Shown: piece by piece, positions 4,748 to 40,567 of the stretch
Layout of the letters: each line of letters starts with the position of its first letter
Position numbering within the stretch: position 1 is the first letter of the stretch
IMG/VR virus record: IMGVR_UViG_3300022723_000240
Coordinates: 1 to 64,000 of that record
DNA length: 64,000 bases
Source: a virus
Reading direction: 5' to 3' (one strand)
Position numbers and translations under genes: made by a program
Notes under the pieces: generated by a model
What the model saw: the letters and a program-made list of their open reading frames with translations, nothing else
Databases searched by the model: none
Told to the model about the DNA's origin: nothing

Positions 4748-6718
4748 ATGTTCGACAATAACCCACAAGACTTAGATAGATCTTTCGGCAATCGGAAGAG
4801 TTATATCTTCAATACTGAAGATGATACTTGGAAAAACTTTGGTACCACTAACGATGTCTCGCTGGTATCCAGAAATAACGATGGGCTAGTTTACCCAGAC
4901 CTATACGAGATCCTAAAAGAGCTAGAACTCAGAGCCAAAAATGGTGAACTTAACAACCTTAAATTAACTGATAATAAGCCTTATTTTTACTTCTTTTACA
5001 ATTCAGATAATTTCATTAAAGTATCTCCAGAAGGCAATTACCTAAGACTAGAAGTTAATAAGGGAGCCTTAAATAGAAGGCTTGCTAAGCCACCTTGTGT
5101 TGGTCAGCGTGGTATTCGTGGAGCACAGGGACAAGCTGGTCGTAACGGTGTTCCAGCGGCCAATGAACGCTTTCGTTCAACTTATCCAGATGGTTCATTT
5201 GATATTACAGTTCAAACGCCATTATTTTCAGAGGAACCCATTAGTTTGCGTGGGTATAATGCATTTCAACTGGAGTTTGAAGTTTTAATTGAAGCAGATG
5301 GTACTATAACCGATCCAAATAATGGCATTGATAGTTTACAATTGATTGGTAACTTTGACGATGGTCAAGTCAATATATTGGGTAAGATAAGCGATCCCAA
5401 CTTAAGATTTAAAATTCGTCAAAGAGGACCTAGGGGAAATCAAGGGGAAGACGGTGTAAATCATATTCAAGTAATTGTTGACGATGCCCCCACTAATGGT
5501 CAGTTTACGCAAGTTGTGGGCATGCTTCGTTATAATGGGGCAATCAATACCTTCATTTTTAAGAAGACATCAGTCAACGAACTACTTAATAATGTTATCA
5601 ATCTCCAGTCACAAGTAGATTTACCATTTGGTCAGTACTGGGCTGCAGTTGAAGTGACATCCAACTTACGCAAAGCAGTTGAATATCATAGATTTATACC
5701 TCAGCTTAAAAAGCCAAGGCTCGATCTACCAAGCTACACACCATTATCTGGATGTTACAATCAAAGACGATATGCACTTGGTTATATCAATGAAGAATTC
5801 GATTCTGCTACGAAAGAAGTTTGGACTAATAGCAGTCCATTCACTATCTTGGGGGATCCAATACCAGAATTAGTCAATTGTAAAGAACCTTATTGGTTCT
5901 GCGGCAATACTGGGGATGAATGTGATTTCCGAATTGATGTAGATCCTGGAGAACCGAATCCCCCATTTGATACTTCATCATCATCTGACACTTCAACTTC
6001 AGATTCATCATTAACTTCTGAATCTTCTGAATCGGAAAACTCTTCTGAATCTTCTGAATCGGAAAACTCTTCTGAATCGGAAAACTCTTCTGAATCTGAA
6101 TCAGATGAGCTGTCTGAGTTATCCGAGCTGTCTGAGCTGTCTGAAGTATCCGAGCTGTCTGAGTTATCCGAGCTGTCTGAGTCTGAAGCATCTGAGCTGT
6201 CTGAAGCATCTGAGCTATCCGAGCTGTCTGAAGCATCTGAGTTGTCTGAAGCATCTGATCAATCTATGGGGGATCCCCCAGGGTGCCCATCTCCACCCAC
6301 ATTTGACATTGTAAGCGAAACAGATGGAACTTGGACCACTAGTGGCAATTCAACATCTGCAACAGTACGCTTTGATTTCGTTGATAGTGCTAACTGTGGA
6401 GGCCCCGGTGGTGCTGGATTTGGTGAAGTATGCTACTCACTCTTTGCAAGTAGTTCAGGCTCCATTGACATTTTTGCCAGTGGTGTCATTGAAGATGAAG
6501 ATTCCGGATTTGACGAGTTAACTGTAACAGTAGATGGAACTCAAGAGCTGTTTGTAACAAGTAATGACAATGGTGGTGGGTGTGGAATGGAATCCAGATC
6601 AGATTCAACCAGTGTACCAGTATCCGCTGGGTGGCACGAAATAATAGTCACAGTTGGAAATAATGATGATTTATTCCACGTAGGTGCTTTCTGGGAGGTT
6701 GATACAACAGTAACATGA
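4748..6718 (+). CDS. Collagen-like virion fibre protein with Ser/Glu repeat
   Basis: A 656-residue probable tail-fibre or virion-surface protein. The N-terminal region resembles those of the fibre proteins starting at 47154 and 49106: a short conserved head with a WKNF motif, then an asymmetric middle with two collagen-like Gly-X-Y stretches (GQRGIRGAQGQAG near residue 118 and RGPRGNQGEDG near 226). Residues about 410-505 are almost only Ser, Glu and Leu in SELSE/SEASE units. The C-terminal 130 residues are a Cys- and Gly-containing beta-rich domain that could be a receptor-binding tip. It starts 12 bases after the endonuclease gene and ends with TGA overlapping the next ATG. Confidence 0.75.
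   Translation: MFDNNPQDLDRSFGNRKSYIFNTEDDTWKNFGTTNDVSLVSRNNDGLVYPDLYEILKELELRAKNGELNNLKLTDNKPYFYFFYNSDNFIKVSPEGNYLRLEVNKGALNRRLAKPPCVGQRGIRGAQGQAGRNGVPAANERFRSTYPDGSFDITVQTPLFSEEPISLRGYNAFQLEFEVLIEADGTITDPNNGIDSLQLIGNFDDGQVNILGKISDPNLRFKIRQRGPRGNQGEDGVNHIQVIVDDAPTNGQFTQVVGMLRYNGAINTFIFKKTSVNELLNNVINLQSQVDLPFGQYWAAVEVTSNLRKAVEYHRFIPQLKKPRLDLPSYTPLSGCYNQRRYALGYINEEFDSATKEVWTNSSPFTILGDPIPELVNCKEPYWFCGNTGDECDFRIDVDPGEPNPPFDTSSSSDTSTSDSSLTSESSESENSSESSESENSSESENSSESESDELSELSELSELSEVSELSELSELSESEASELSEASELSELSEASELSEASDQSMGDPPGCPSPPTFDIVSETDGTWTTSGNSTSATVRFDFVDSANCGGPGGAGFGEVCYSLFASSSGSIDIFASGVIEDEDSGFDELTVTVDGTQELFVTSNDNGGGCGMESRSDSTSVPVSAGWHEIIVTVGNNDDLFHVGAFWEVDTTVT
5971..6264 (+). repeat. Low-complexity Ser/Glu-coding repeat
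   Basis: About 290 bases of short imperfect tandem units (variants of TCTGAGCTGTC, TCTGAAGCATC and TCTGAATC) encode a Ser/Glu/Leu-rich linker in the fibre protein. The opposite strand is accidentally open here. Such repeats change length easily by slippage, so fibre length could vary between isolates. Confidence 0.9.
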
Positions 6719-8523: not shown

Positions 8524-8766
8524 TTATCCTTTGCGCTGATGAGAGTTGGGTTTCCCACAAAGATCATTAAGATTTGCGTGCAAACTAGTAATCTTATTAG
8601 ATCTAATTAAAACGTCCAGCATGAGTCCACCCATATAATCTATGTGGGGTTTTTTTAGAGCAGCTTTGTCTTCCTTCTGTTCTTTGACCAATTCTTTCAA
8701 AGAGGATCGAACCTCCTCAATTTGGTCACGACGTTCATCGATAGTCAGTTCCGTTAAATCAGACAT
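8524..8766 (-). CDS. Small coiled-coil-like hypothetical protein
   Basis: An 80-residue highly charged helical protein (EELRRDQIEE-like heptads in the first 45 residues), no recognised family. AAGGAAG precedes ATG 8766 at good spacing; the longer start at 8805 has none. It is followed by the bidirectional terminator. It lies 86 bases downstream of the Pth2-like gene and may share its transcript. Confidence 0.6.
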   Translation of the reverse strand: MSDLTELTIDERRDQIEEVRSSLKELVKEQKEDKAALKKPHIDYMGGLMLDVLIRSNKITSLHANLNDLCGKPNSHQRKG

Positions 8767-8852
8767 GGTTTTCTTCCTTAGGGTTAGTGAGTTGTTAAAA
8801 CACACACCTTAAGGAGGTCCGCGAGACATTCAGAAAAAGATATATTGGTATA

Positions 8853-9200
8853 TCATTTTCCGTACCTCCATAGCCTGAATTTAGATAAACATTTTTTCTC
8901 TTCCACTGTTAGAGGCGATGTAGCCACAGCGGTAAGCTGATTTCCGATATCAGGCTCATAAAACCTGACTAATGGAATGTTTTTGTTATCTAATTTCTTT
9001 ATAACTTGTTGCAGGCGCAATTCAGAATTGGCTTCGCAAACAACAACGGCATTAATTCTATCACTATCGCCATATTTTATCCCAGCTTCATGGGCAGCAT
9101 GCACTGCCTGAACTAATTGTTGTTCTACTGGTAGGTCAGTGCGCACAAAAACAAAAAAGTGTTTCTGCGCTCACTCGTAGGCGGTGTTTTTGTTCATCAT
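8853..9200 (-). CDS. Pth2-like peptidyl-tRNA hydrolase with in-frame TGA
   Basis: The 97-residue part from GTG 9146 resembles archaeal/eukaryotic-type peptidyl-tRNA hydrolase 2: RTDLP then QAVHAAHEA (helix with the catalytic-type His) and YEPDIGNQLTA (the Asp-Gly loop). The family frees tRNA from stalled peptidyl-tRNA. The open frame continues upstream of GTG as HFFVFV, which completes the first beta strand of the fold, but meets a TGA at 9173-9171. Beyond it the same frame has ATG ATG at 9200, directly after a TATAAATA box. The product is therefore either translated through UGA (115 residues, Trp at codon 10), started inefficiently at GTG without a ribosome-binding site, or a damaged gene. 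The tRNA with anticodon UCA at 13.7 kb makes the first option worth testing. Confidence 0.6.
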
Positions 9201-9489: not shown

Positions 9490-12400
9490 ATGATTTTAAA
9501 TATGCTCACGAACGGACAATTTGATGAAGCTCGTGATCACAAATTATCAGAGATTTCTAATAAAGTTAATGGTCGAAGTTCTTGGGATAGCCCTCAGTAT
9601 AATGCTAATAAAGAAATCCAAAAGTCCATAAAAATTGACGAAAGTAGAGATGCATTACTAACTTATGCTGGTCTTTGTCAGTTGTATAATCGTTATTTTC
9701 TCAAAGACAAAGACGGCATTACAGTAGAAACACCACAAAGCTTTTTCGCTCGCGTTGCCACAGGCGTTTGCCGTGGCGATGTAAAATTTGCTCAAAGACT
9801 TTATGATCGTCTCAGCCAATTACATTTTATGTTAGCTACTCCAGTTATCTGCAACGCAGGTACTAATCGTGGTCAACAAATCAGTTGCCTTACCGGTGAC
9901 AACAAAATAAACACTAAAGATGGGTTTAAAAATATCTCTAATATTAATGTTGGTGATGAAGTATTAACACATACCGGAAGTTGGAAAAAAGTAATCGGAT
10001 TCAAAAAACAAGAATCTAGTGATATATGGGCACTAAAAACATACAAAAGATCCACTGAAATAAAGATAACTGGCAATCACACAGTGCTAACGAACAATGG
10101 TTGGAAAAGAATCGATCAAATCAATATCAATGAAGACTATATTGCAATAAATAAACATATACAATGCGATAATAGCAACTTGATATTGGATATGATGGAA
10201 TATTGCACTTATGGCAGTTTAGCATTAGTCAATGACGGAAAGATATACAAAAAGACATCAGATAAACGACTTAGAAGTGGTCCCACAAATGACAACTACT
10301 TGCCAATAAAAGAAAGGGTAGAAGTAAACGAAGATCTAGCTTGGATCATTGGTTTGTGGCTAGCCGAAGGGTCATTAGGAAAAAACTTCATTAGGGTGAC
10401 ACTGCATGCTGATGAATCCCATTTAGGAGATAAGTTCCTGAATATCATAAACAACATGTTTGGAGCAGACGGTAATCAGTACTTATCAGAAGCAAAAAGA
10501 AATGGGAAAATAAACAAGTGGCGTAATGCTTATGCAAATAGCTCTATACTAGAAAGAATGTTTAATAATCTGTTCTATGATGAAAACAAAAACAAAACTA
10601 TACCCAGCAGATTCTTAGATCTACCACCAAATGTCAAAAAATCTTTAATAAAAGGATTTTTTGACGGTGATGGTTGCATCCATGCTGATGGAAGATATAA
10701 CACCACAATTATAAATAATGAAAATCTTTGTGGCCAATTGTATTTAATGGCTACATCAATCGGGTACGATTGCTCCTTACGACTAGACAAACCAGCCGGA
10801 AAATTATCTAAAAACGAATTTAATCAGACATTATCTCTATTTGTAGATGGATTTAATGAAAAATCATCCCAAAAAATAATCGATGGAGACAAAGTAAAAT
10901 ACTCTAGGATCAGGTACTTGCACCGTATCGATGACTATGAAGATACTGTTTACGATATTCAAGTTGAAGATGATGAATCATTTTCTGTATCTGGTGTGGT
11001 AGTCCACAATTGCTTCTTGAATCGCTGCGAAGATTCTATTGAGGGAATCTTTGATGATATGATCGCTGAAAATGCACAAATAAGTAAAGGCGGCGGCGGC
11101 ATTGGAACTTATATGGGCGACGTTCGTGGCAAGAATGCTAGGATCAGCATTGGTGGTAAAAGTGAAGGAATAATCCCATTTGTTAAAATGATTGACTCTC
11201 TTGTCCCAGCCATCAAGCAGGCTGGTATGCGTAAAGGTGCTGCTGCAGTCTATCTAAATGTAGACCACCCAGATATCGAAGATTTCATTAGAGTTCGCGA
11301 CCCGACTGGCGGTGATGAGAACCGCCGTTGCATGAATTTAAATAATGCTGTAGTTGTCACGGACACTTTCATGAAAGCCGTGCGCGATGGTGAAGATTAT
11401 GACTTGATTTGCCCCAACACCAAAAAATCAGTGAAGAAAATTAGTGCTCGTTACATCTGGGAAGAACTAATTCGGATTCGTTCAAAGACTGGTGAGCCAT
11501 ACATCTTATTTTATGACACCATAAACAGGAATATCCCAGATCACCACCAAGAAATGGGCCTAGAAGTCGTACAAAGCAATCTTTGTGCTGAAATCACCTT
11601 GCCCACCAATTACGAACGAACTGCCGTTTGCTGCTTAGGATCAGTAAACTTCGAGACCTTCGACCAGTGGGAAAATGAAATTGATGGGGTCACAGAGGAC
11701 ATCTGCCGTGCTCTCGATAATGTGCTAGAAAACTTCATAGAAAATGCACCAGATCGTTATGCCAGGGCCAAATACTCGGCAAGAATGGAACGATCCATCG
11801 GAGTTGGCGCTATGGGATACCATGGCTACTTGATGGGCAAAGGATGGGCATTCTCATCAGATGTCGCCAGATGCTTCAATAAAAACGTATTCTTAAAAGT
11901 AAAGAAAGGTCTGATAGCTGCATCCGAAAAATTGGCCGTCGAACGCGGACCTTGTCCTGATGGCGGCAATCGACGCAATTCCAACCTTATGGCAATTGCA
12001 CCTACTGCTACCATTTCTACCATTGCTGGGTCCGCTACACCTTGTATCGAGCCTGTTTATGCTAATTCCTACCCTATAGAAACTATGGATGGAACTTTTA
12101 TGATGCGTAACAAATATCTTACACCAATCCTTGATAAATACGGTCAAAACACTCCTAAGATTTGGCGCTCTATCTCTAATAAGAAAGGGTCTGTACAACA
12201 CTTAGACTTCCTATCTAATAAGGAAAAAGAAGTATTCAAGATTGGCGATGAGCTAGACCAGAGAGAAATCATTGTGCAAGCTGCTCATCGTCAGCACGCC
12301 ATGGACCATGGTAAAGGCGGGCAAAGCCAGAGTGTTAATCTATTTTATAAAACTCCTATGGACATCCAAGACCTCCATGAATCCCACATGATGGCCTGGA

Positions 12401-12573
12401 AACTAGGGCTAAAGAGCCTATATTATTTGCGCTCTACTGCTTCATCAGAGGCAGACACTGCTGACAAAATTAAGCAACGCAGTAATAAATTGACAGCTGT
12501 AAGCGACGATGCTCCTAAGGTTTGTACTCTAAACCCAGGAACAAACCCCGAAGAATGCTCTGTTTGCCAATAG
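9490..12573 (+). CDS. nrdA: Class I ribonucleotide reductase large subunit with intein
   Basis: The large subunit reduces ribonucleoside diphosphates to deoxynucleotides with NrdB. It is 1027 residues, of which 133-507 are an intein, leaving a 652-residue enzyme. The first redox cysteine (ISCFL) is the residue right after the intein. The catalytic SNLCAEI loop, the second redox region AVCCLGSVN and the C-terminal CSVCQ relay pair are present. The extein is shorter than the 761-residue E. coli NrdA because the N-terminal ATP-cone is absent, so dATP feedback through that domain is not expected. GGGGGAA precedes the ATG. A terminator separates it from nrdB 60 bases downstream. Escape from the host dNTP limit during phage replication is the usual role. 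Confidence 0.95.
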   Translation: MILNMLTNGQFDEARDHKLSEISNKVNGRSSWDSPQYNANKEIQKSIKIDESRDALLTYAGLCQLYNRYFLKDKDGITVETPQSFFARVATGVCRGDVKFAQRLYDRLSQLHFMLATPVICNAGTNRGQQISCLTGDNKINTKDGFKNISNINVGDEVLTHTGSWKKVIGFKKQESSDIWALKTYKRSTEIKITGNHTVLTNNGWKRIDQININEDYIAINKHIQCDNSNLILDMMEYCTYGSLALVNDGKIYKKTSDKRLRSGPTNDNYLPIKERVEVNEDLAWIIGLWLAEGSLGKNFIRVTLHADESHLGDKFLNIINNMFGADGNQYLSEAKRNGKINKWRNAYANSSILERMFNNLFYDENKNKTIPSRFLDLPPNVKKSLIKGFFDGDGCIHADGRYNTTIINNENLCGQLYLMATSIGYDCSLRLDKPAGKLSKNEFNQTLSLFVDGFNEKSSQKIIDGDKVKYSRIRYLHRIDDYEDTVYDIQVEDDESFSVSGVVVHNCFLNRCEDSIEGIFDDMIAENAQISKGGGGIGTYMGDVRGKNARISIGGKSEGIIPFVKMIDSLVPAIKQAGMRKGAAAVYLNVDHPDIEDFIRVRDPTGGDENRRCMNLNNAVVVTDTFMKAVRDGEDYDLICPNTKKSVKKISARYIWEELIRIRSKTGEPYILFYDTINRNIPDHHQEMGLEVVQSNLCAEITLPTNYERTAVCCLGSVNFETFDQWENEIDGVTEDICRALDNVLENFIENAPDRYARAKYSARMERSIGVGAMGYHGYLMGKGWAFSSDVARCFNKNVFLKVKKGLIAASEKLAVERGPCPDGGNRRNSNLMAIAPTATISTIAGSATPCIEPVYANSYPIETMDGTFMMRNKYLTPILDKYGQNTPKIWRSISNKKGSVQHLDFLSNKEKEVFKIGDELDQREIIVQAAHRQHAMDHGKGGQSQSVNLFYKTPMDIQDLHESHMMAWKLGLKSLYYLRSTASSEADTADKIKQRSNKLTAVSDDAPKVCTLNPGTNPEECSVCQ
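9886..11010 (+). mobile_element. Intein in NrdA with LAGLIDADG endonuclease
   Basis: A 375-residue intein begins CLTGDNKINTKDGF and ends VVVHN before the C-extein CFLNRC. Block B is TGNH, and the endonuclease motifs are IIGLWLAEGS and IKGFFDGDGC. It is inserted immediately before the redox-active cysteine, so the unspliced protein should be inactive. All junction residues for standard splicing are present. Confidence 0.95.
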
Positions 12574-13698: not shown

Positions 13699-13773
13699 CG
13701 GGCCGTGTGGGATTCGAACCCACAACCAGCGGTTTTGAAGACCGCCGCTCTAGCCAATTGGAGCTAACGGCCC
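13699..13773 (-). tRNA. tRNA with anticodon UCA (UGA-reading, tRNA-Trp-like)
   Basis: The minus strand folds into a complete cloverleaf: acceptor GGGCCGT/ACGGCCC (7 of 7 pairs), D stem GCTC/GAGC, anticodon stem GCGGT/ACCGC, loop CTTCAAA, 5-base variable region, T stem GTGGG/CCCAC with loop TTCGAAT, and discriminator G. The anticodon is UCA, which pairs with UGA. The short variable arm and 7-bp acceptor exclude a selenocysteine tRNA. G73, the AATTGG D-loop and the TCAAA loop resemble tRNA-Trp, so it is probably a tRNA-Trp(UCA) suppressor, able to read UGA and perhaps UGG. CCA is not encoded. Its 5' end abuts the stop codon of the gene at 13774. Confidence 0.9.
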
Positions 13774-14079
13774 TTAAATATCTCTCATATTCGCCAAGCC
13801 ATAAATGGCTTTTGCACCATACGCTGCCACTTTTTCAGTCGGCAACGTACTATTATTGATAAGATCCTCAACTTCATTAATAATCTTAGTGGCTAAATCA
13901 ACGGCCAGATCATCTTCGTCAGATAAAGGATCCTCTTCGAACAACTGCTTATTTGCTAGATGTCTAACAGCAGCGCCCACTACCATTGTAAAAATATCTT
14001 CCTTAGTTAATTCACCTTTGTGTTCTTCAAACAGATGGTTAACAGTTTCTTCAATATTCGTGCTTTCCATTGTTTTCAT
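13774..14079 (-). CDS. Small acidic hypothetical protein (101 aa)
   Basis: Not recognised. A 101-residue helical protein rich in Glu and Asp, with a middle acidic run (EEDPLSDEDD). ATG 14079 follows AAAGGCG at suitable spacing; the GTG at 14094 would only add five residues. A TTATAAAC box lies about 17 bases upstream of the ATG. Its stop codon TAA is immediately followed by the first base of the tRNA, so the tRNA is probably processed from the same transcript. Confidence 0.65.
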   Translation of the reverse strand: MKTMESTNIEETVNHLFEEHKGELTKEDIFTMVVGAAVRHLANKQLFEEDPLSDEDDLAVDLATKIINEVEDLINNSTLPTEKVAAYGAKAIYGLANMRDI

Positions 14080-14157
14080 AGCTACGCCTTTCACAAGTTT
14101 ATAAGCACCAACAAATCAATTTAAGTCATTTCTTGGTTTTCTTATTCCTATAACCTA

Positions 14158-14304
14158 TCACCTCAAAACATCTGAGCAACTTGGGCAAGATGCCCTAAAA
14201 TCATCACCGCTTCTAAAATAATATTCAAACTTATCTTCGGAACACTCTGGGTGCAAGCACATTAATGTTACACGCAACTCACTTTCATGCCAATGACTAA
14301 TCAT
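14158..14304 (-). CDS. 48-residue zinc-ribbon protein
   Basis: A short gene that starts with an ATG overlapping the TGA of the ligase C-terminal gene (ATGA). The product is 48 residues and contains C-x4-C (CLHPEC) and C-x2-C (CPSC), spaced 19 residues apart, a typical small zinc ribbon. It ends with TGA then TAG. Translational coupling is likely because no separate ribosome-binding site is visible. It might be an accessory to the ligase, but that is only inferred from the coupling. Confidence 0.65.
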   Translation of the reverse strand: MISHWHESELRVTLMCLHPECSEDKFEYYFRSGDDFRASCPSCSDVLR

Positions 14305-15152
14305 GCCAACATACCATCGAACTCGTCCATTCCAATAATCTGAACACCAGCCTTACGGGCCTTTTCCGCCTTACTGCTGGTGCTGGCCGGATCTTTGAGC
14401 ACTAAATAGGTAAGATCCTTTCCTACGGACTTCTTTTCTTCACCGCCCAAGTCTTCAAAGGTAGATTTCTGATCAGCGGTCATTCGCACACCAGAGAAGC
14501 AGAATGTTTGCCCCGACAGTTTTCCGTCAGTAATCTTCTTCTTAGGCTGTAGGATCTTAACGTGCTCCCTCAAACGCAGTATTAGGTCCCTGCGCTTCTT
14601 GAGCGACTCATGAACCTCGTTGGCTGTTTCTTGTCCGTATTTGCCAGTATCACTGCACGGCATTCCAACAAAGTTGCTAGCATCGGCATTTAGATAATAG
14701 TCAGTATTATCAAATCCGTGATCGATTAGTAGAGCGGCACGACTGCGCCCCAAGTGTTTGATAGACAAGGATCCAATAAACAGATCAATTGGAATCTCTC
14801 GGGTCTTGTCAATCTCTTTTAGGATTTTCTTGGCATTACTGCCAATTTTCCCCTTGCCAATAGGCAACGCTGCTACTTCATCTTCGTCGAGAGTGTAGAG
14901 ATCATCTACTTCCTTGACCATACCATTATCAATCATGGACATAAGAGCAGTATCGCCAAGCTGCTTGATGTTGGTCTTATTCACCCAATTTCGAATACGC
15001 TGGAAATTAAGATCAGGGCAGTCCTCGTCAGTAACCTTCCAATCACGCCCTTCTCGAACCAGAGGATAACCCTTCCAATCAGTAGGAGGCGAATGGAAAT
15101 CCTTATTAATAGCTTTTAATATTATATTAACACCACCACAACGAATAGCCAT
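14301..15152 (-). CDS. ligB: NAD-dependent DNA ligase, C-terminal subunit (HhH and BRCT)
   Basis: A 283-residue protein equal to the C-terminal part of bacterial LigA. It begins near the zinc-finger end (GYPLVREG then TDEDCPD), has helix-hairpin-helix motifs over about residues 50-190 and a BRCT domain (LSGQTFCFSG, then GGEEKKSVGKDLTYLV) over the last 80. It lacks the adenylation domain, which is encoded at 15996-17165 on the same strand, with an endonuclease gene in between. The start has AGGAGA and a promoter box, so it is separately expressed and should pair with the N-terminal subunit. Phage T5 has a comparable two-gene NAD ligase. Confidence 0.88.
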   Translation of the reverse strand: MAIRCGGVNIILKAINKDFHSPPTDWKGYPLVREGRDWKVTDEDCPDLNFQRIRNWVNKTNIKQLGDTALMSMIDNGMVKEVDDLYTLDEDEVAALPIGKGKIGSNAKKILKEIDKTREIPIDLFIGSLSIKHLGRSRAALLIDHGFDNTDYYLNADASNFVGMPCSDTGKYGQETANEVHESLKKRRDLILRLREHVKILQPKKKITDGKLSGQTFCFSGVRMTADQKSTFEDLGGEEKKSVGKDLTYLVLKDPASTSSKAEKARKAGVQIIGMDEFDGMLA

Positions 15153-15166
15153 TTATGTCTCCTACA

Positions 15167-15195
15167 ATTTGTAACAAGAACAAGTGATTTAGTAA
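15167..15195 (-). promoter_or_regulatory. Bipartite promoter before ligB
   Basis: Minus-strand TTACTAA (15195-15189), 12 bp, then TGTTACAAAT (15176-15167), followed by TGTAGGAGA and ATG 15152. The leader would be about a dozen bases, starting near the ribosome-binding site. Confidence 0.5.
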
Positions 15196-15206
15196 ACCAC
15201 AATCAA

Positions 15207-16010
15207 ATGTACTTAATGAAAAGGCAGCGACATTATAACATTCAATCACATGAACTAAAATTATTATATGAAAACGGTTACTCCCAAAGTAAATTATCTG
15301 AATATTTTAAATGTAGTCACACAGTTATTGAAAATCGAATGAAAGAATATAATATCGAAAGGCGATCTTATGCTAAAGCATCATCGATCCGGAACAAAAC
15401 AATTAAACTAAATGAATCACAGGAACAATTGATTATTGGATCCCTATTAGGTGACGCTTGTTTAGTGGAAGCCAATTATATCAGCAACAAAAAGTCCAAA
15501 TCTAAACTTAAAACTTACCGACTATTATTCGCTCACAGCGAAAAACAAATTGAATATCTTAAGCACAAGAAAAATATATTGGGCGGATCTAAAATAGGAA
15601 CCAGAAAGAGTGGTCATGGTGCCACAATCAAACATTTTGCATTTTGTAGTAAACCAACTTTAGAGCCATTCGCCAAAATCTGTCTACGGGACAACAAAAA
15701 ATCAGTAACTAAAGAATGGTTGTCCCAACTAAAACCGGAAGGATTGGCCTATTGGTTTATGGATGATGGCTATACCATAAAACGCAGTCGAACCTCTCAC
15801 GGTGCGTACCTGTGTACGGACAGTTTCAACGAAGAGGAAATTAAATTGATCCAAGATTGTTTAATCAGAATGGGCCTTGAAACTAAAGTGAGTCACACTA
15901 AAACTGGTCCTAGGGTAAGATTTCCGTCTACTGATATCACAAATTTATTATTTGACATCATTAAGCCATGGGTCATCAAATCCATGGAGTATAAACTAGT
16001 CGGTGTCTGA
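15207..16010 (+). CDS. LAGLIDADG homing endonuclease between the ligase halves
   Basis: A 267-residue protein with an N-terminal helix-turn-helix-like region (SQSKLSEYFKCSHTVIENR, residues about 26-45) and two LAGLIDADG-type motifs, IIGSLLGDAC near residue 76 and LAYWFMDDGY near 180. Tandem repeats are absent. It is on the strand opposite to the ligase genes and its end overlaps the end of the ligase N-terminal gene by 15 bases. The location fits insertion at the zinc-finger junction of a once continuous ligase gene. No good ribosome-binding site precedes ATG 15207. Confidence 0.88.
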   Translation: MYLMKRQRHYNIQSHELKLLYENGYSQSKLSEYFKCSHTVIENRMKEYNIERRSYAKASSIRNKTIKLNESQEQLIIGSLLGDACLVEANYISNKKSKSKLKTYRLLFAHSEKQIEYLKHKKNILGGSKIGTRKSGHGATIKHFAFCSKPTLEPFAKICLRDNKKSVTKEWLSQLKPEGLAYWFMDDGYTIKRSRTSHGAYLCTDSFNEEEIKLIQDCLIRMGLETKVSHTKTGPRVRFPSTDITNLLFDIIKPWVIKSMEYKLVGV

Positions 16011-17165
16011 TGGTATCTGATGGTGTTTCTCCTGCGCCGGATAATCACCAACAAATCCGCATTTTGGGCACTTATAATCAACCCCGACAACCGCTAGGAT
16101 ATGTGGTATCACGTCTCCCGCTTTTTCGATAATAACCTCATCTCCGATTTTTAAGCCTAAGTCCTCAATATATTCAAAATTATTTAATAGACAGTGGGTG
16201 ACATTGGTGCCTGCCAATTTTATCGATTCAACCACCGCTGTTGGAATGATCTTACCGGTATGCCCTATTGTGTTCTCAATATCAATTACTCTCGTAATGC
16301 CCCTTTCTGAGTCAAACTTCCAAGCGATCATTCCAACTGGCCTACTACCACCATCTGAGTAACCAAGCTTTTCTTGGACGGCTAAGTCATTAATTGCCAC
16401 AATCATGCCGTCAATCTCAAAATCCAACGTTTTGCGATCTTCTTCGTAGTGCTCTCGGCACTTTTCTAGCTCTTCTAAATTCTGGCACCGAAAGAACCGT
16501 ACCGTACCGAAGCCCAATTTCTGCAAAGCGATGAACTTATGTCGTTGCTCTTTGAAATTTACCTCAGGATGAACAATATCAAATGCGTGAAAAGTGATGT
16601 GCTTATTACGGTCAAAACCAGAATCGCAGACGGTAATTCCGTTACCGGCATTGCGAGGATTAGCCATTTCGGGAAAATTCTTTTTCCAGTTTTCCACCGA
16701 AAGCTGCGCTTCACCACGAACGATCAGACGTTTACTAACATCAATCTTGCTAGGAAGACCAGACCACAGCTTGGCATTCTTAGTGACATCCATGCCCGTA
16801 GTGCCATCGCCACGAGTAGCGACTCTCAACAGCTTGCCGCCTTCATAGACTGCTTCCATACTACTACCATCTAGTTTATCTGAGACTACTACCTCTGGCT
16901 GGTTATATTTATCATACCAGCTTTTAAGATCTTCAGCATCTTTGGCCTTGTTCTGGCTGCCCATATGCATAAAGAGCTTCACCTCTTTACGATGGGCAGG
17001 GACTGGAGCACCAACCTCTTCAAAAAAGGCATGATCCGGAGAGATCTTCTTTAGATGGTCACGAAGCTTATCAAACTCCAGATCAGTCATTAATGCCTTC
17101 TCACCATTATAATAAGCATGAGAAGCTTTTCGAAGAGTATTCGCTATTTGATCAACACTTGGCAT
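15996..17165 (-). CDS. ligA: NAD-dependent DNA ligase, N-terminal subunit (adenylation and OB)
   Basis: A 389-residue protein covering the Ia, adenylation and OB domains of bacterial LigA. The lysine that takes AMP from NAD+ is K97 (DKLDGSS). EIDGMIVAIND, VGMIAWKF and NTIGHTGKIIPTA are further conserved motifs. It ends in the first half of the zinc finger (YKCPKCG), 20 residues later, at TAG. HhH and BRCT domains are in the separate gene at 14301-15152. CGGAGAA precedes the ATG, and a bipartite promoter lies just upstream. The two proteins together should seal nicks; the adenylation part alone is expected to be weak on DNA. Confidence 0.9.
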   Translation of the reverse strand: MPSVDQIANTLRKASHAYYNGEKALMTDLEFDKLRDHLKKISPDHAFFEEVGAPVPAHRKEVKLFMHMGSQNKAKDAEDLKSWYDKYNQPEVVVSDKLDGSSMEAVYEGGKLLRVATRGDGTTGMDVTKNAKLWSGLPSKIDVSKRLIVRGEAQLSVENWKKNFPEMANPRNAGNGITVCDSGFDRNKHITFHAFDIVHPEVNFKEQRHKFIALQKLGFGTVRFFRCQNLEELEKCREHYEEDRKTLDFEIDGMIVAINDLAVQEKLGYSDGGSRPVGMIAWKFDSERGITRVIDIENTIGHTGKIIPTAVVESIKLAGTNVTHCLLNNFEYIEDLGLKIGDEVIIEKAGDVIPHILAVVGVDYKCPKCGFVGDYPAQEKHHQIPSDTD

Positions 17166-20179: not shown

Positions 20180-20480
20180 CGCTAGGACCTCCATCGTTAC
20201 TTTGTAATGACAGGTGAATAGTTAGACAATCCTCTAATTGGTCTCTGACCTTATGTAGCCAATTATCAAGATCGCCTTGAAAATCTTCTCGAAAATCTTC
20301 TTCAGATTTTAAAATACTAACTTTATTTTCTTTTGAAGGAATGATCACAACATCGAAACGACTTCCGAACGGACGTTCATGTTCCAACCAATCAGACAGC
20401 TGCTTAATCTTGGCCGCAACCACCCAAGATTCTAGCTCACTAACATCGATATACCAAACAACATACTCACGTTTCTTCAA
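20172..20480 (-). CDS. Hypothetical protein (102 aa)
   Basis: Not recognised. About 102 residues with alternating strands and helices. GGAGG lies 6 bases before a TTG at 20480, which is a better start than the ATG at 20504 that gives 110 residues. It begins within the end of the UDP-sugar dehydrogenase gene and stops just inside the next gene. Confidence 0.55.
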   Translation of the reverse strand: MKKREYVVWYIDVSELESWVVAAKIKQLSDWLEHERPFGSRFDVVIIPSKENKVSILKSEEDFREDFQGDLDNWLHKVRDQLEDCLTIHLSLQSNDGGPSDV

Positions 20481-22710
20481 CGTAATCCTCCGATACTGCA
20501 CCATCGATGGTTAACCAATCCTTATTTTTCCGGTAATTAGCATTATCATTCCATGCTGCTGCCATAACTTTGGCACTAGATCCATTTCCTTTAGCTAAAC
20601 TCATTAAAGCATTTAAGTCTTTGGGGAAACAATTAGCAGTCAACAGATTTCCAGAAGTAATGAAATTTTCATTGTCTTCTACTTGTGTAGAATACACTTC
20701 AGTAGGATCGTCTATCAACAATATCTCTATTACTCTAACTAGCGTATAATGATCAAGCTCAATATAGTGAGTATACCCGCTACCCCCATCTTGCATATTG
20801 TTTGACTTATCTCTTATAAAATAATTTCTCTCTTGTTCAATAAGATTAAGATAGTTAGAAACTGCGATAATATCATCCTTACAATTAATATTTAACTGAT
20901 GAGATATCCCAGATGATTTTTTGCCTGTCTTCTGACAATAAGAAGCAAACACTTTTATGTTTCTTAAGATACTATTAATCTGTTCAATTAAAATCTTACT
21001 TTGGCTTGCAATATTTAATCCAATATGTTTCCCATAACCATTCTTGACCGTTCCATCACCTCTAAAATAAGACGACAAACAAACTCTTATTAAGTGACTA
21101 TCGTTAAATATACAATCCGGTATTTTCTTATTTTTACTATTAATGCCACATCCCAACTTGCCCAATATATATCCTAAAACAGAATTTTTAACTACCACGA
21201 CACTACTATCGTGATTGTAATACTTATCGATTTTGTGATAGTACTCATATCCTTTACAAGATAACGACTCACATAAGTCATTAATATAATAATCTTTATG
21301 AAATCCAAATGAAAAATAGGTTAATGGATTTCCTCTATCATCGATAGTAATATTTCCTCCAGCTAAATAATACCCAACAATTTTAGCATAGTCATCATCA
21401 ATTGTTATTAATTCATCAAATTCAGATGAAGTATTGGTTTTAATTTTTACAACATCAGACTGATTAATCCTTAATGCAATGCACGCCTGCTTAGATATTA
21501 AAGATCTGTCACCGTTTAGCAATCTAGTTTTTTGATCTCTAGATATGATATCATTACCATACAAAAACTGTATTTCATCATCAGTAATATTTCTATTAAT
21601 TTTAACCCATTTAACCTTTTCATATGGCAATAAATTAATAGTAGAAGTAATTTTATCCCTAGAAATTGGGACATTAACACTGGCTACGTAATCACCAATC
21701 TTCAAATCAGATACTTTAACTTTCTCAAAAGTTCTAGATTCTGGATTAAAAACTAAATGATTGTGATCAATAGATGAAGTAACTCTTGATCCCTTATCAG
21801 TTTTAATCATTAATAACTGATTAACCACCCTTTTCCTTACACCTTCTATGGGTTTAAACTCAACAGCAGCACTAAAACGATTATAGCTAGCAACACTAAT
21901 CTTATGATCATCTTGTAGATCGAATAAATCTCTAAAATAATATAAATTTGGCATACAATTATCCAATTTGGCGTGAACTACTTCATCACCGACTAGGCAC
22001 TTACCACCAAATCCAAAATCACCATCAGGGCCTGGAACCTGTAAATGGGTTGGGCCAACTCTACTATCTAAAGAGAAGGCACGCACTATATCATCCCAAT
22101 CTCCTGAAACCATATCTTTATCAGTTAGGATATTCCACAACTGATGGTATTCGTTCATCAATGACACCTTAACTGAGAACCAAACATTAGTCATGTACTT
22201 AGCCATCATAGCTGATTCTGCCGTGACCTCAGCATACATAATATCTTGTGGGGCATTACGATAAACAAAAAGATACAATTCTTTTAATAGTGATATGTCA
22301 TCCTTATCACCACCCAATAGTATCCATTCAGTATTAATAAAGTCTTCCCTAGCTCTTCGCTCCGTTAAGAATTCAGGATTAGTCACTATACGTAATGTTG
22401 GAAACCATTTTCTAAACTTACATACTGATGTTGGCAAAAGAGTCGATTTAATTACCGCAACGCCCGAATAATGCTCTGTCTCCAATTCACGCAAAACATT
22501 CTGTACAATAGAGTCATCAATAGCACCACCCTTACACATAGGTGTCGGCACGCATATAAATATTATATCTTTATCAATGACCCTGCTAATAGTAGATCCT
22601 AAAATTTTCGGGTCATGAACCGCAATATTTGTGACACCAAAATACTCAAATCCATTCTTGAGCGCATCACCAACGAACCCAAGACCAATAATACCAATTG
22701 ATTTGTCCAT
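20467..22710 (-). CDS. UDP-glucose/GDP-mannose dehydrogenase-like protein with intein
   Basis: NAD-dependent nucleotide-sugar dehydrogenase of the UDP-glucose 6-dehydrogenase family, which would make UDP-glucuronate or a related acid. The N-terminal GLGFVGDAL Rossmann loop, FICVPTP and the EFLTERRAREDF signature are present. The catalytic motif GFGGK-CFPKD is split by a 456-residue intein placed right before the active-site cysteine (residue 694 of 747). After splicing only about 291 residues remain, so the C-terminal UDP-binding domain of the usual 400-residue enzyme is missing. It may be a short phage form or act with another subunit. Confidence 0.85.
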   Translation of the reverse strand: MDKSIGIIGLGFVGDALKNGFEYFGVTNIAVHDPKILGSTISRVIDKDIIFICVPTPMCKGGAIDDSIVQNVLRELETEHYSGVAVIKSTLLPTSVCKFRKWFPTLRIVTNPEFLTERRAREDFINTEWILLGGDKDDISLLKELYLFVYRNAPQDIMYAEVTAESAMMAKYMTNVWFSVKVSLMNEYHQLWNILTDKDMVSGDWDDIVRAFSLDSRVGPTHLQVPGPDGDFGFGGKCLVGDEVVHAKLDNCMPNLYYFRDLFDLQDDHKISVASYNRFSAAVEFKPIEGVRKRVVNQLLMIKTDKGSRVTSSIDHNHLVFNPESRTFEKVKVSDLKIGDYVASVNVPISRDKITSTINLLPYEKVKWVKINRNITDDEIQFLYGNDIISRDQKTRLLNGDRSLISKQACIALRINQSDVVKIKTNTSSEFDELITIDDDYAKIVGYYLAGGNITIDDRGNPLTYFSFGFHKDYYINDLCESLSCKGYEYYHKIDKYYNHDSSVVVVKNSVLGYILGKLGCGINSKNKKIPDCIFNDSHLIRVCLSSYFRGDGTVKNGYGKHIGLNIASQSKILIEQINSILRNIKVFASYCQKTGKKSSGISHQLNINCKDDIIAVSNYLNLIEQERNYFIRDKSNNMQDGGSGYTHYIELDHYTLVRVIEILLIDDPTEVYSTQVEDNENFITSGNLLTANCFPKDLNALMSLAKGNGSSAKVMAAAWNDNANYRKNKDWLTIDGAVSEDYVEET
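20632..21999 (-). mobile_element. Intein at the catalytic cysteine of the nucleotide-sugar dehydrogenase
   Basis: A 456-residue intein begins CLVGDEVVHA and ends SGNLLTAN, followed by Cys of CFPKD. A TSSIDHNH segment fits block B. LAGLIDADG-type motifs are degenerate (IVGYYLAGGN and LSSYFRGDG). The terminal Asn and +1 Cys are present, so splicing is expected. It is the largest of the three inteins here. Confidence 0.93.
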
Positions 22711-22935: not shown

Positions 22936-24543
22936 CTATACTGCTACGGGAGCTTTAATAGCAGGATGTGGGTCGTAACCCTCTACCTTTATATCTTCAT
23001 GTGTAAATGAAGTTAGGGTTTCTATACCTTTGCCCTTCAACCGATCATTAATAGTTAACGTGGGCAATTTCCTAGTTTCTCTGCTCAATTGTTCTTCAAC
23101 TTGATCCATATGATTTTTATAGATATGAAGATCGCCAAAGCTGTGAATAAATTCACCTACCTCTAAGTCACACGCCCAAGCAATTAAATGCGTAATCAAG
23201 GCATAAGATGCTAGATTAAACGGCACACCCAAAAAGAAATCAGCGCTTCTTTGATGCAGTTTAATGCTTATCTTGCCATCACGCACATAAGCTTGCCATA
23301 AAGTATGGCAAGGTGGTAGACAGACCGTGTTTGCTTCTTTAGGATTCCAACCTGTTACGATCAACCTACGTGAATTTGGATTAGTCATAATCTCATTAAT
23401 CAGCCAAGCTATTTGATTAAAAGTAGTTCCATACCTATAATTATTATCAATTTCTTTAAAGGTCCAGCCTTTATGACTCCCTCCTTCTCTTAAACATTTA
23501 GAAATTTTACTTCTATCAAGGTCATGAATATTGGCAAATTCATTCTGATTTATGTGAATATGGGTCTCGCCCTCTGGGGATATTGCCTCGAATGATTTAT
23601 TTTTAGTGTACAGTGAATTTCTATCTTTCCTAAGCCAAATACAAGTATCAGGAGAATATACTTCAGATTTATAGTGATCTTTATCAATTTGATATAAGGA
23701 TGGGTTACCTAATTTCATATTGAAATTAGGTAACAATTTAGAATCACTATAGAAATTAGCATAGTTTAGCCATCTCTTGCAAACAGTTATTCCTTTAGCA
23801 CCATAGTATTCATACTCTTTGCAATTTTGATTATAACATCTTTCTAACATATGGACCCATGTCTTCTTCAAATTATCATTAAAATCATCATCATATTCAG
23901 TGCATTTTATACCAACATACCCAATGCCACACACAGACGGCTCAAATTCATCCTTTATTCTTCCATGCAAGGCCGCATCTTTTCTAACTTCCTTAATTCT
24001 ACCAGACATAAATCTAACTAAAACTAGCGGTCTTCCTTGATCATCGTTGCCAATTGGACTGGTGGAATATGTAAAAGATTTTCCATTAGCTGACCATGGA
24101 GCATATGGTTTATCTAACTCATCAGTATTACAATATTTTTCTAATTGTGGGTCTACACTACACCACTCAGATGGCGCCCTGGGATCAACTTTAACTATTC
24201 CGTCATCACTCCCAAAATATGCCCATTGTTTGCCATAAATAGGACCCAAATCGCCTTCTTTACGATCAAATCGTGCGCATTGCTCTTCTGTTGCCCACTC
24301 GTCCCATATTGTGCAATTTAAATCCTGTAAAAATTGCACATCGGTTCGACCACGCATGAACCACATTAATTCGGATACAATCGACTTCAAATGGACTTTT
24401 TTAGTAGTCAATAACGGAAATCCTTCAGATAAATCAACACGATATTGATGACCAAAAAGAGAATAAGTACCAACCCCAGTGCGGTCACCACTATTAACAC
24501 CGGTATCATAGATTTCTTTAAGAAGTTCGAGATATGCTTTCAT
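22936..24543 (-). CDS. thyA: Thymidylate synthase with in-frame endonuclease-like insertion
   Basis: Makes dTMP from dUMP and methylene-tetrahydrofolate. Residues 1-115 match the N-terminal half of ThyA (GDRTGVGT, FPLLTTKK, DLGPIYGKQW). Residues 374-535 are the C-terminal half, with the catalytic cysteine C412 (LPPCHT), the QRSADFFLGVPFN segment and HIYKNH. Between them is a 258-residue continuous insertion. Without it, the enzyme has the normal size of about 277 residues. GGAG precedes the ATG. It is part of the dNTP set with nrdA, nrdB and dut. Confidence 0.92.
   Translation of the reverse strand: MKAYLELLKEIYDTGVNSGDRTGVGTYSLFGHQYRVDLSEGFPLLTTKKVHLKSIVSELMWFMRGRTDVQFLQDLNCTIWDEWATEEQCARFDRKEGDLGPIYGKQWAYFGSDDGIVKVDPRAPSEWCSVDPQLEKYCNTDELDKPYAPWSANGKSFTYSTSPIGNDDQGRPLVLVRFMSGRIKEVRKDAALHGRIKDEFEPSVCGIGYVGIKCTEYDDDFNDNLKKTWVHMLERCYNQNCKEYEYYGAKGITVCKRWLNYANFYSDSKLLPNFNMKLGNPSLYQIDKDHYKSEVYSPDTCIWLRKDRNSLYTKNKSFEAISPEGETHIHINQNEFANIHDLDRSKISKCLREGGSHKGWTFKEIDNNYRYGTTFNQIAWLINEIMTNPNSRRLIVTGWNPKEANTVCLPPCHTLWQAYVRDGKISIKLHQRSADFFLGVPFNLASYALITHLIAWACDLEVGEFIHSFGDLHIYKNHMDQVEEQLSRETRKLPTLTINDRLKGKGIETLTSFTHEDIKVEGYDPHPAIKAPVAV
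23425..24198 (-). mobile_element. HNH/AP2-type endonuclease-like insertion in thymidylate synthase
   Basis: Residues about 116-373 do not belong to ThyA. They contain a phage HNH/AP2-like block (WVHMLERCYNQ, YYGAKGITVCKRW, then YQIDKDHY and YSPDTCIW) and a NUMOD-like DNA-binding end (EFANIHDLDRSKISKCLREGG). No intein splice residues flank it (no N-terminal Cys/Ser motif block, no His-Asn), and the frame stays open, so it may remain in the protein as a surface loop or be removed as an intron. The borders are estimates from the ThyA pattern. Confidence 0.75.
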
Positions 24544-38626: not shown

Positions 38627-39278
38627 AGACGCTGAAGAGATATTAAACGATCCAATTAGTGCAGACGATTTTCAGTCAGAAGATTTTCCTGAAGCTGAAG
38701 AACAGGAAGATATGGACCCTGATGAACTAATGGGGGATGACGATCTAGACATAGAAGATGATGAGATTGACCCAGTAGGTGACATTGGGCTCGGCGGAAC
38801 CGATTTTAATACAGAATTAGAAGATGATTCTTTAGATTTACCAGACAACGAGCCTGAACAACCTAAAATTGTTGCCCCAGAAGAACAAGTGCGTTGGACC
38901 GTCGTACCTCAAGAAAACGGAGATATTTGGTCCGAACACGTCAACGGTTTTGTATTGAGGGCTAGGCCACTAAGTGCCCAAAAAGGCCCCCAGATCAAAT
39001 ATGCGGCACAGTTATTTAAAGATCAAAAGATGATCGAAAATGGCACTATTTGGATCGATAAAGATACTGATGCAACTGAATATCTGCAAAATGTTGCTGA
39101 TAGGATCCTAGATCGAATGGGGCTCACCAATCTAAGTAAAATGCAAGCAGAGCCAGAAGAAATAAGCAATATCGCTAATGACTTGGGTCTTGAAGAACCT
39201 AAGCCCGAAGAAGAATTAGACCTCGATCTTGGAGAAGATGAGGTAGATCTTGATATTGATGTTGATGAAGATCAATAG
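38619..39278 (+). CDS. Very acidic hypothetical protein (219 aa)
   Basis: A 219-residue protein with acidic N-terminal (residues 1-85) and C-terminal (LDLDLGEDEVDLDIDVDEDQ-like) tails around a folded centre (residues 90-165, RWTVVPQENGDIW to YLQNVADRIL). GGAG precedes ATG 38619. The end overlaps the convergent VWA gene by seven bases. Possible DNA-mimic or scaffold-type protein; no family recognised. Confidence 0.6.
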   Translation: MPRDAEEILNDPISADDFQSEDFPEAEEQEDMDPDELMGDDDLDIEDDEIDPVGDIGLGGTDFNTELEDDSLDLPDNEPEQPKIVAPEEQVRWTVVPQENGDIWSEHVNGFVLRARPLSAQKGPQIKYAAQLFKDQKMIENGTIWIDKDTDATEYLQNVADRILDRMGLTNLSKMQAEPEEISNIANDLGLEEPKPEEELDLDLGEDEVDLDIDVDEDQ

Positions 39279-40567
39279 TCATCATCAACATAATCTTTAC
39301 CAATAAATATAACCTCGCCCCAAAATCTAGAAGTTTGTCCTTTCCATATTGAATCAATCAAAACCCACAAAAATGGATAGGGGCGTGGTTCTGGTATCGG
39401 AGCGTGGCCATCTGTAAGCATGATGTTCATCTTACCAATTAGCCCATTTTCTTCAGCAAATTCTAAGCAATTTGTAAAAGAAGTGCCGCCACGACCTTTA
39501 ACTTCAATAGACTTCCAATCGCCTTTATGATAGTCTTTTGCTTGCTGCACTTGATGGTCAAATTCTACAAGCCTGATTTTAAAATATTGAGAAGCACTTT
39601 CAATTTCCCCGAAGAACTTTTGTAGCATCTTGTCTGATACTGAGCCACTAGTGTCCACATAAATGGTCAACGGAACCCTGTTTCTTTTGGAATAGCCTTT
39701 AATTCCAAATTGATCGCGCTTACGATGGCGCTTTGCAAAAGTCCAGCGCTTCCCACCTGCCGCTCTACCAACTGCACTACGAAGCAAATAAGTCCAATTG
39801 ATCTCTGCTTTCTCAAGTTGCTTAATAGCTTCCGTTAAATGGCCAGGTGCATTACCACAAGCACGAGTAGCAGCCCTAGCCAAACTTTTAGCAGTATTGC
39901 GCATTTCCTCTGGGCTTGCTTCACTATCTGCCCAAGTGTCATGATTATCAAAGGCATCTACAGATAAGGGATAGTCAGACCCTTTTGGTGTTAAAACAGA
40001 TCCAACGCCACTACAATTGCCGCCACCAACGCCACTACAATTGCCGCTACTATCGCCATCGAAGGAAAAATTCTTTCGTTCGGTGTTATCATGCAACCAC
40101 TTAAAGAATTCCTCTGTGGTCATACTAACTCTTAAGTCTTTTATCTTAGTCTTGGACCATATCCCAGGATTTTGTTTACTAGGAATATAACAGCCATTGG
40201 GTGGCAAATCCGCAATACGAGGATCATCTGATTCACCATTAATAACCCAATCAGCCGCAATATTCCAAGACTCATGAGCATGGCGATTGTTTTTTAATTG
40301 TTTGCTACGTGGAATATGCATACGAATTATATGTTCAATTTCATGCTTAATAACTGCAATTAATTGCTCTGTTTCCATCTCTTCCACAAAAGATGGAGAA
40401 TACACACATTCTACTTTACCCAAGCGTAGAATCCGAACACCCATAGTTCCAACGTTCTCTTGGGGCACCCAAATCATTCTAGTTGCAATTACCCCATACC
40501 AAGGGTCCGTCATCATAGCACGACAACGAGCATTAGTAAGCTTAGTCTTAGGACTTACAACGTTCAT
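39272..40567 (-). CDS. DUF2201-type VWA protein with HExxH motif
   Basis: A 431-residue protein with an N-terminal putative metallopeptidase domain (HEIEH, residues 75-79, inside VIKHEIEHIIRMH) and a C-terminal von Willebrand factor A-like domain (VDTSGSVS near 305, MIDAS-type DxSxS; later LTDGHAP). This is the architecture of DUF2201 proteins, which pair with MoxR ATPases. ATG 40567 overlaps the TGA of the MoxR gene; a TTG at 40570 is less likely. Expected to be a metal-ion-dependent protein-binding or chaperone partner. Confidence 0.85.
   Translation of the reverse strand: MNVVSPKTKLTNARCRAMMTDPWYGVIATRMIWVPQENVGTMGVRILRLGKVECVYSPSFVEEMETEQLIAVIKHEIEHIIRMHIPRSKQLKNNRHAHESWNIAADWVINGESDDPRIADLPPNGCYIPSKQNPGIWSKTKIKDLRVSMTTEEFFKWLHDNTERKNFSFDGDSSGNCSGVGGGNCSGVGSVLTPKGSDYPLSVDAFDNHDTWADSEASPEEMRNTAKSLARAATRACGNAPGHLTEAIKQLEKAEINWTYLLRSAVGRAAGGKRWTFAKRHRKRDQFGIKGYSKRNRVPLTIYVDTSGSVSDKMLQKFFGEIESASQYFKIRLVEFDHQVQQAKDYHKGDWKSIEVKGRGGTSFTNCLEFAEENGLIGKMNIMLTDGHAPIPEPRPYPFLWVLIDSIWKGQTSRFWGEVIFIGKDYVDDDY

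What the first reader, a model, noticed from the sequence alone, without database searches (positions are those of the whole stretch)
13699..13773. tRNA with anticodon UCA in a genome that uses TGA as a normal stop
The sequence shows a well-formed tRNA whose anticodon loop is CTTCAAA, so the anticodon UCA reads UGA. It is Trp-like (G73, short variable arm, AATTGG loop) and not a selenocysteine tRNA. At least 20 genes in the window end in TGA, often as ATGA overlaps, so UGA is still a stop. Lytic phages with recoded stops and matching suppressor tRNAs are known; here termination and decoding of UGA would have to coexist, perhaps as regulated read-through of coupled genes. Read-through would extend most TGA-ending genes by only 3-30 residues before another stop (for example 4748-6718, 7098, 8853).
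Basis: partly seen in the sequence, partly recalled or inferred. Interest (0 to 1): 0.85.

Follow-up and report, generated by a model that had tools for sequence, protein, structure and literature searches.

The report
Suppressor tRNA that unlocks one gene
This virus of bacteria carries a tRNA that reads the stop signal UGA although UGA still ends its genes normally; the tRNA seems to exist so that one small gene, locked by a UGA near its start, can be made, and many other large phages carry the same lock and key, usually with UAG.

Summary
The tRNA is real (13773-13699, minus strand; Rfam tRNA 63.7 bits) and the phage fragment uses the standard code (94% coding under table 11; TGA ends 23 of 64 ORFs of at least 80 aa). 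What it reads was missed: the Pth2-like peptidyl-tRNA hydrolase gene at 9200-8853(-) has an in-frame TGA at codon 10, with no usable start codon between that TGA and the first conserved strand. The arrangement recurs. Of 109 phage loci with this Pth2-like gene, 65 have an early in-frame TAG, 5 a TGA, none a TAA; 60 of the 65 TAG loci carry a CUA tRNA within 10 kb and 4 of the 5 TGA loci a UCA tRNA, with no crossed pair in these windows. All 97 suppressor tRNAs lie on the Pth2 strand; the base after the early TAG is a purine in 59 of 60. An HD-motif partner gene carries the same lock in some phages and predicted suppressor tRNAs elsewhere in 3 of 4 genomes. Best reading: suppression-gated expression of a tRNA-recycling enzyme, probably as feedback on the suppressor. 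Reports on phages XacN1 and Atu_ph07 left the targets of their suppressor tRNAs open; candidates are given here. Nothing was tested experimentally.

The parts
13699..13773 (-). tRNA with anticodon UCA (opal suppressor, Trp-like anticodon arm)
8853..9200 (-). Pth2-like gene read through its early TGA: MMNKNTAYE[TGA]AQKHFFVFVRTDLPVEQQ...
   Evidence: frame; coordinates; Pth2 identity
9171..9173 (-). in-frame TGA, codon 10; next base G; no ATG/GTG/TTG from here to the conserved first strand (the first GTG, at 9146, lies inside the strand and has no Shine-Dalgarno match)
9195..9200 (-). ATGATG, proposed start; only a weak Shine-Dalgarno (TAAG, 4 nt before the second ATG)
8853..9146 (-). ORF as listed mechanically (GTG start), lacking the first residues of strand 1
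13774..14094 (-). 106-aa ORF of unknown family directly upstream of the tRNA on the same strand (its stop codon abuts the tRNA)

Best explanation
The UCA tRNA is a dedicated opal suppressor kept to gate one gene. Ribosomes start at ATG 9200 (or 9197) on the Pth2-like mRNA and normally stop at the UGA at codon 10, giving a 9-residue peptide. When the phage's UCA tRNA has been made, matured and charged (probably with Trp), it competes with release factor 2 at this UGA and the Pth2-like peptidyl-tRNA hydrolase is made. The rest of the genome keeps UGA as a stop; its genes can tolerate some read-through because another stop usually follows soon. Related large phages use the same lock with UAG and a CUA tRNA, and sometimes lock a partner gene (HD-motif protein) or an HD-Pth2 fusion. 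Shown: tRNA, gene, early stop, match of stop and anticodon across phages, shared strand, purine after the stop. Inferred: that read-through happens, what amino acid is inserted, and the purpose. The purpose I think most likely is feedback: the enzyme that clears peptidyl-tRNA is made only in proportion to suppressor activity, so it limits or repairs the harm of suppression; the lock also delays expression until the phage tRNA is ready.
For: Window gene: in-frame TGA, no usable start after it. Pth2 identity: PF01981 matches 32 of 37 family members, profile hits in the PDB led by Pth2 enzymes, AlphaFold model pLDDT 96, the first 13 Foldseek hits all Pth2, query TM 0.70-0.82. Covariation over 109 loci: 65 early TAG, 5 early TGA, 0 early TAA, while TAG ends only 12% of ORFs in 80 of these loci; at 70% identity clustering 31 TAG+CTA, 4 TGA+TCA, 0 crossed (p 1.9e-5). 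All 97 suppressor tRNAs on the Pth2 strand. Base after the early TAG: purine 59 of 60, against 42% at ordinary TAG stops (p 2e-21) and 62% for first bases of early codons (p 2e-11). Opal-tRNA phages found by tRNA alone then showed TGA in Pth2: G001, G017, G006. Cultured Atu_ph07, with a UCA tRNA, has SD-ATG ATT GGC GAA CAC TTT TGA in one of its Pth2 genes. Forecasts from the HD-motif gene: G027 (TGA) has two UCA tRNAs, G025 and CM1 (TAG) have CUA tRNAs; G026 failed. Canonical Pth2 paralogues whose N-termini were read (XacN1, CM1, G025) have no early stop.
Against: No expression, charging or peptide data. The window's start has a weak Shine-Dalgarno, and a non-AUG start after the TGA cannot be ruled out. 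The tRNA lies 4.5 kb from the gene with oppositely directed nrdA/nrdB between. Some Pth2-like genes have no early stop yet a suppressor tRNA is near (10 clusters; e.g. L125, L137, L151), so the tRNA may have other targets, or Pth2 may act on the tRNA. Exceptions: L132/G022 has TAG in Pth2 but two UCA tRNAs elsewhere on its partial contig; L123, L158, L253 and G026 (contigs, mostly partial) show no suppressor tRNA in what was searched; mycobacteriophages have a well-placed GTG just after the TAG.
Confidence: 0.82

Rival explanations
1. Pre-emergent or late-gene recoding: the tRNA serves (or will serve) wholesale reassignment of UGA in genes outside this 67.8-kb fragment, as in crAss-like phages.
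For: Suppressor tRNA without visible reassignment has been described as an incipient code change (PMC7886860); several UCA-tRNA phages in hand gain much coding density when TGA is read as sense (G008, G012, G014); this fragment lacks identified head and terminase genes.
Against: The window, including putative tail-fibre genes, gains nothing with TGA as sense (94.0 to 94.1%). The early stop in Pth2 with a matching tRNA recurs in many phages without sign of wholesale recoding.
Confidence: 0.08
2. The early stop is a short upstream reading frame that tunes translation of Pth2 by re-initiation at a later start; the suppressor tRNA is unrelated.
For: In mycobacteriophages a GTG with a good Shine-Dalgarno follows the TAG; a few others have an ATG after it (L142, L153).
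Against: In most loci no start codon lies between stop and strand 1; stop identity tracks tRNA anticodon and is never TAA; the base after TAG is purine in 59 of 60.
Confidence: 0.06
3. The tRNA is mainly a Trp tRNA for UGG (U34 reads G as well as A), and UGA reading is a side effect.
For: Trp-like anticodon arm, 80% identity to Mycoplasma tRNA-Trp(UCA).
Against: Trp is 1.42% of residues in the window, so no special demand is evident; phages L003, L005 and L006 carry a Trp(CCA) tRNA as well as the UCA tRNA; it does not explain the Pth2 pattern.
Confidence: 0.04

Closest known systems
Phage stop-codon recoding with suppressor tRNAs (crAss-like, Lak and other large phages; PMC7886860, PMC13037316)
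   Same: Phage-encoded suppressor tRNA reads a stop codon as sense; UAG and UGA versions exist.
   Different: There many genes, mostly late ones, carry in-frame stops. Here one gene (or a gene and its partner) has a single stop near its start, and the genome keeps the codon as terminator.
Early in-frame UGA of prfB (release factor 2 autoregulation; PMC12421855)
   Same: An early in-frame stop makes expression depend on competition at that stop, for a protein of the termination/recycling machinery.
   Different: prfB is rescued by a programmed frameshift; here the downstream gene is in the same frame and a dedicated suppressor tRNA is encoded by the phage.
PTH2 genes of jumbo phages (PMC7824862)
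   Same: Same enzyme family, reported across jumbo phages and proposed to act in ribosome rescue and tRNA repair.
   Different: The passages found in that paper make no link to suppressor tRNAs or an early stop; the short paralogue is often unannotated or N-truncated.
XacN1 CUA tRNAs and Atu_ph07 UCA tRNA (PMC5852040, PMC6102473)
   Same: Jumbo phages with suppressor tRNAs and ordinary use of stop codons.
   Different: The XacN1 authors could not identify target genes; the Atu_ph07 authors proposed several, unnamed. Here a TAG at codon 3 of XacN1's HD-Pth2 fusion and a TGA at codon 7 of an Atu_ph07 Pth2 are candidates.

Membership tests
Transfer RNA | cloverleaf scoring above Rfam's cut-off | tested here: met
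   RF00005 63.7 bits, cut-off 29
Selenocysteine tRNA | long acceptor and long variable arm | tested here: not met
   7-bp acceptor, 5-nt variable loop in the Rfam alignment
Opal suppressor tRNA | anticodon UCA in a normal elongator body | tested here: met
Opal suppressor tRNA | charged and active on UGA in cells | not testable with these tools
   needs tRNA sequencing, charging assay or reporter
Genome with UGA reassigned (code 4 or 25) | coding density rises and genes contain TGA when TGA is sense | tested here: not met
   94.0 vs 94.1%; TGA 1.05 per 1000 codons in long frames against 13.6 in G001
Pth2 peptidyl-tRNA hydrolase | sequence profile similarity | tested here: met
   PF01981 in 32 of 37 members, best 4e-7; the window member alone is weak, E 0.021, below the curated cut-off
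Pth2 peptidyl-tRNA hydrolase | fold | tested here: met
   model pLDDT 96; first 13 PDB hits are Pth2 structures
Pth2 peptidyl-tRNA hydrolase | conserved active-site residues | tested here: inconclusive
   invariant D7, Q16, H19, E67, P68 in 37 members; not mapped residue by residue on a solved active site
Pth2 peptidyl-tRNA hydrolase | hydrolase activity | not testable with these tools
   enzyme assay needed
Suppressor-gated Pth2 cassette (proposed here) | early in-frame stop matching the anticodon of a suppressor tRNA on the same strand | tested here: met
   window TGA + UCA, same strand

The most novel reading that the evidence does not exclude
A natural genetic circuit found across many large phages: a phage-encoded suppressor tRNA and a matching early stop form a lock and key on a divergent Pth2 enzyme and its HD-motif partner. 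The enzyme acts on the suppressor's own peptidyl-tRNA products, so the circuit senses and limits stop-codon suppression. Stop and anticodon have switched together between UAG and UGA.
Probability: 0.4. Interest if true: 0.93.

Novelty: new variant of a known kind. Interest (0 to 1): 0.86.

Why it matters
Suppressor tRNAs in phages that keep the standard code have been an unexplained annotation; the XacN1 report says outright that no target could be identified (PMC5852040). If right, this gives a common target, a reason it was overlooked (the frame before the stop is usually only a few codons long, so annotation misses or truncates the gene), and cultured phages in which it can be tested. It would also be a natural case of suppressor-tRNA-gated expression, a device so far known to me from synthetic biology (e.g. 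PMC7969014, abstract only).

Tried and rejected
DNA similarity of 15 kb of the window to sequenced phages: no match. RNR small subunit and the MoxR-like ATPase as routes to close relatives: one distant locus and none. C-terminal read-through of TGA-ending genes as the purpose: extensions after TGA are not longer than after TAA or TAG. Global TGA reassignment in the window: rejected. The exact anticodon arm in bacterial genomes mostly found Mycoplasmatota tRNA-Trp(UCA), which fits a Trp-like arm but was selected by the pattern itself. ARAGORN at a low score threshold gives many false suppressor tRNAs and was used only where BLAST against known ones agreed. No HD-motif partner was found in the window or in the parts searched of G006, G017, G009 and Atu_ph07. 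The code of G001 stayed ambiguous: under TGA-sense some long frames may be antisense shadows. Literature searches with Pth2, suppressor and phage terms found no report of the link.

Full report
Observation. One tRNA lies at 13773-13699 on the minus strand, anticodon UCA, scoring 63.7 bits against the Rfam tRNA model, with an ordinary variable loop. The window is G000:1-64000 of a 67,768-base virus record. Code 11 covers 94.0% of it; reading TGA as sense adds nothing. Of 64 ORFs of at least 80 aa, 26 end in TAA, 23 in TGA and 15 in TAG. So a UCA tRNA sits in a standard-code phage fragment. The nearest tRNAs in hand are a UCA tRNA of phage G001 (84%), one of phage L006 (81%), then Mycoplasma/Spiroplasma tRNA-Trp(UCA) and the Trp(CCA) tRNA of G001 (80%).

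How the target was found. Seventeen viral contigs with a UCA tRNA were collected by the anticodon-arm pattern alone. Comparing window proteins with them by tblastn gave an unexpected signal: the small ORF 8853-9146(-) has homologues next to the UCA tRNA in three of these contigs. Its sequence resembles Pth2 peptidyl-tRNA hydrolase. Reading the frames upstream showed an in-frame TGA close to an ATG in the window (MMNKNTAYE[TGA]AQKHFFVFVRTDL), in G001 (MES[TGA]VLDKTYVYVFVRKDL) and in G017 (MH[TGA]IANTHSYVFVRYDL). A whole-record search of the 17 contigs found a fourth, G006: MKQPLS[TGA]VSCKTYLYTISRRDIPL. In G009 the Pth2-like gene starts at an ordinary ATG.

The amber version. Sequenced phages with a homologue showed the same layout with TAG and a CUA tRNA: Acinetobacter phage ME3, Serratia phage BF, Erwinia phage Kaldavass, Salmonella phage Arash, Cronobacter phage GAP32, Pectobacterium phage CBB, Xanthomonas phage XbC2 and a metagenomic phage. 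The gene is unannotated in BF and starts too late in GAP32 and CBB.

Scale and statistics. A search of viral contigs with an alignment of the family returned 80 loci, a second search 44, partly overlapping. Over 109 loci scored by one rule, 65 have an early in-frame TAG, 5 a TGA, none a TAA; 60 of the 65 TAG loci have a CUA tRNA within 10 kb and 4 of the 5 TGA loci a UCA tRNA. Three CUA tRNAs missed by default ARAGORN were recovered by similarity. After clustering at 70% identity: TAG+CUA 31, TAG alone 3, TGA+UCA 4, TGA alone 1, no stop with CUA 10, no stop and none 13; stop type against anticodon has no crossed cell within these windows (Fisher p 1.9e-5), TAG against CUA p 4.5e-6. Clusters are not fully independent. 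In the 80 loci TAG ends only 291 of 2,423 ORFs. All 97 suppressor tRNAs are on the strand of the Pth2-like gene. The base after the early TAG is A in 40, G in 19, C in 1; at ordinary TAG stops in the same loci purines are 42%, in early codons 62%. From general knowledge of nonsense suppression, a purine after the stop favours suppression.

Forecasts. A scan, blind to homology, for SD-ATG-short-stop-open frame in the same loci picked out a second gene, an HD-motif protein (HDxGKPF; no Pfam family) that lies beside Pth2-like genes or is fused to them. It has an early TAG in L107, L131, L138, L150 and L164 and in the HD-Pth2 fusions of XacN1 (MK[TAG]TIKAMK), CM1, L101 and L149, and an early TGA in L129. 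No suppressor tRNA was within reach of L101, L149, L129 or CM1 in their first loci, so their whole records were searched: G025 (L101) has two CUA tRNAs, CM1 one CUA (and a UUA), G027 (L129) two UCA tRNAs; G026 (L149) has none on its contig. XacN1 is reported to carry CUA tRNAs of unknown target (PMC5852040). Atu_ph07, reported with a UCA tRNA (PMC6102473), has a Pth2 gene with a Shine-Dalgarno, ATG ATT GGC GAA CAC TTT TGA, and no start codon between the TGA and strand 1; the annotated CDS begins at a later internal ATG. Canonical Pth2 paralogues whose N-termini were read in XacN1, CM1 and G025 have no early stop.

The protein. The family matches PF01981 in 32 of 37 members, Pth2 chains in the PDB by profile (2zv3, E 9e-6), and folds with pLDDT 96 into a model whose first 13 PDB hits are Pth2. 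The window member alone scores weakly against Pfam. The tail that carries the stop is variable, and the 66 distinct suppressor tRNAs in these loci differ widely (median pairwise identity 57%, discriminator A in 43 and G in 16). This suggests that reading the stop matters, not the residue inserted.

Mechanism. Shown by sequence: lock (early stop), key (matching tRNA), same strand, suppression-friendly context, both UAG and UGA versions. Inferred: read-through in cells and its purpose. Suppressor tRNAs also accompany Pth2-like genes that have no early stop (10 clusters), so the enzyme and the tRNA probably work together, the stop being a control layer. Feedback on suppression, or repair of peptidyl-tRNA that suppression produces, fits best; a simple timing switch is the main alternative purpose.

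Limits. The window's own start has a weak Shine-Dalgarno; its tRNA is 4.5 kb from the gene. G022 carries TAG in Pth2 but UCA tRNAs elsewhere on the contig. In mycobacteriophages of cluster C a GTG with a good Shine-Dalgarno follows the TAG, although a CUA tRNA lies about 0.5 kb downstream. The literature search covers only the open-licence library.

Noticed in passing
window 9490-12573 (+) and 20467-22710 (-): Ribonucleotide reductase large subunit and a UDP-glucose dehydrogenase-like protein each contain an intein with a LAGLIDADG domain.
   Followed up: no
window 14301-17165: NAD-dependent DNA ligase is split into two minus-strand ORFs (adenylation/OB part and a C-terminal part) with a LAGLIDADG endonuclease ORF on the opposite strand between them.
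   Followed up: no
window 22936-24543 (-): Thymidylate synthase ORF of 535 aa with a long insertion between its two Pfam-matched stretches.
   Followed up: no
window 39272-41877 (-): MoxR-like ATPase next to a DUF2201 VWA/metallopeptidase protein, both with homologues in several jumbo phages, which suggests that the record is a fragment of a larger phage.
   Followed up: partly
window 8524-8805 (-): Small protein just downstream of Pth2 has homologues near the Pth2-like gene in L130 and L144.
   Followed up: no
L123 about 9650-10243: An upstream ORF that looks NADAR-like to me (no profile search done) ends in TAG in frame with the Pth2-like core, so read-through would make a fusion.
   Followed up: no
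L125, L133, L135, L137, L260, L261: Sub-family MSYIYSIIRKD without an early stop keeps an adjacent suppressor tRNA, CUA in five and UCA in one; the anticodon changed while Pth2 needs no suppression.
   Followed up: partly
L134 about 15.1 kb, L268, L287, CM1 176611: UUA-anticodon (ochre) tRNAs also occur near Pth2-like genes or in the same phage; no early TAA was seen.
   Followed up: no
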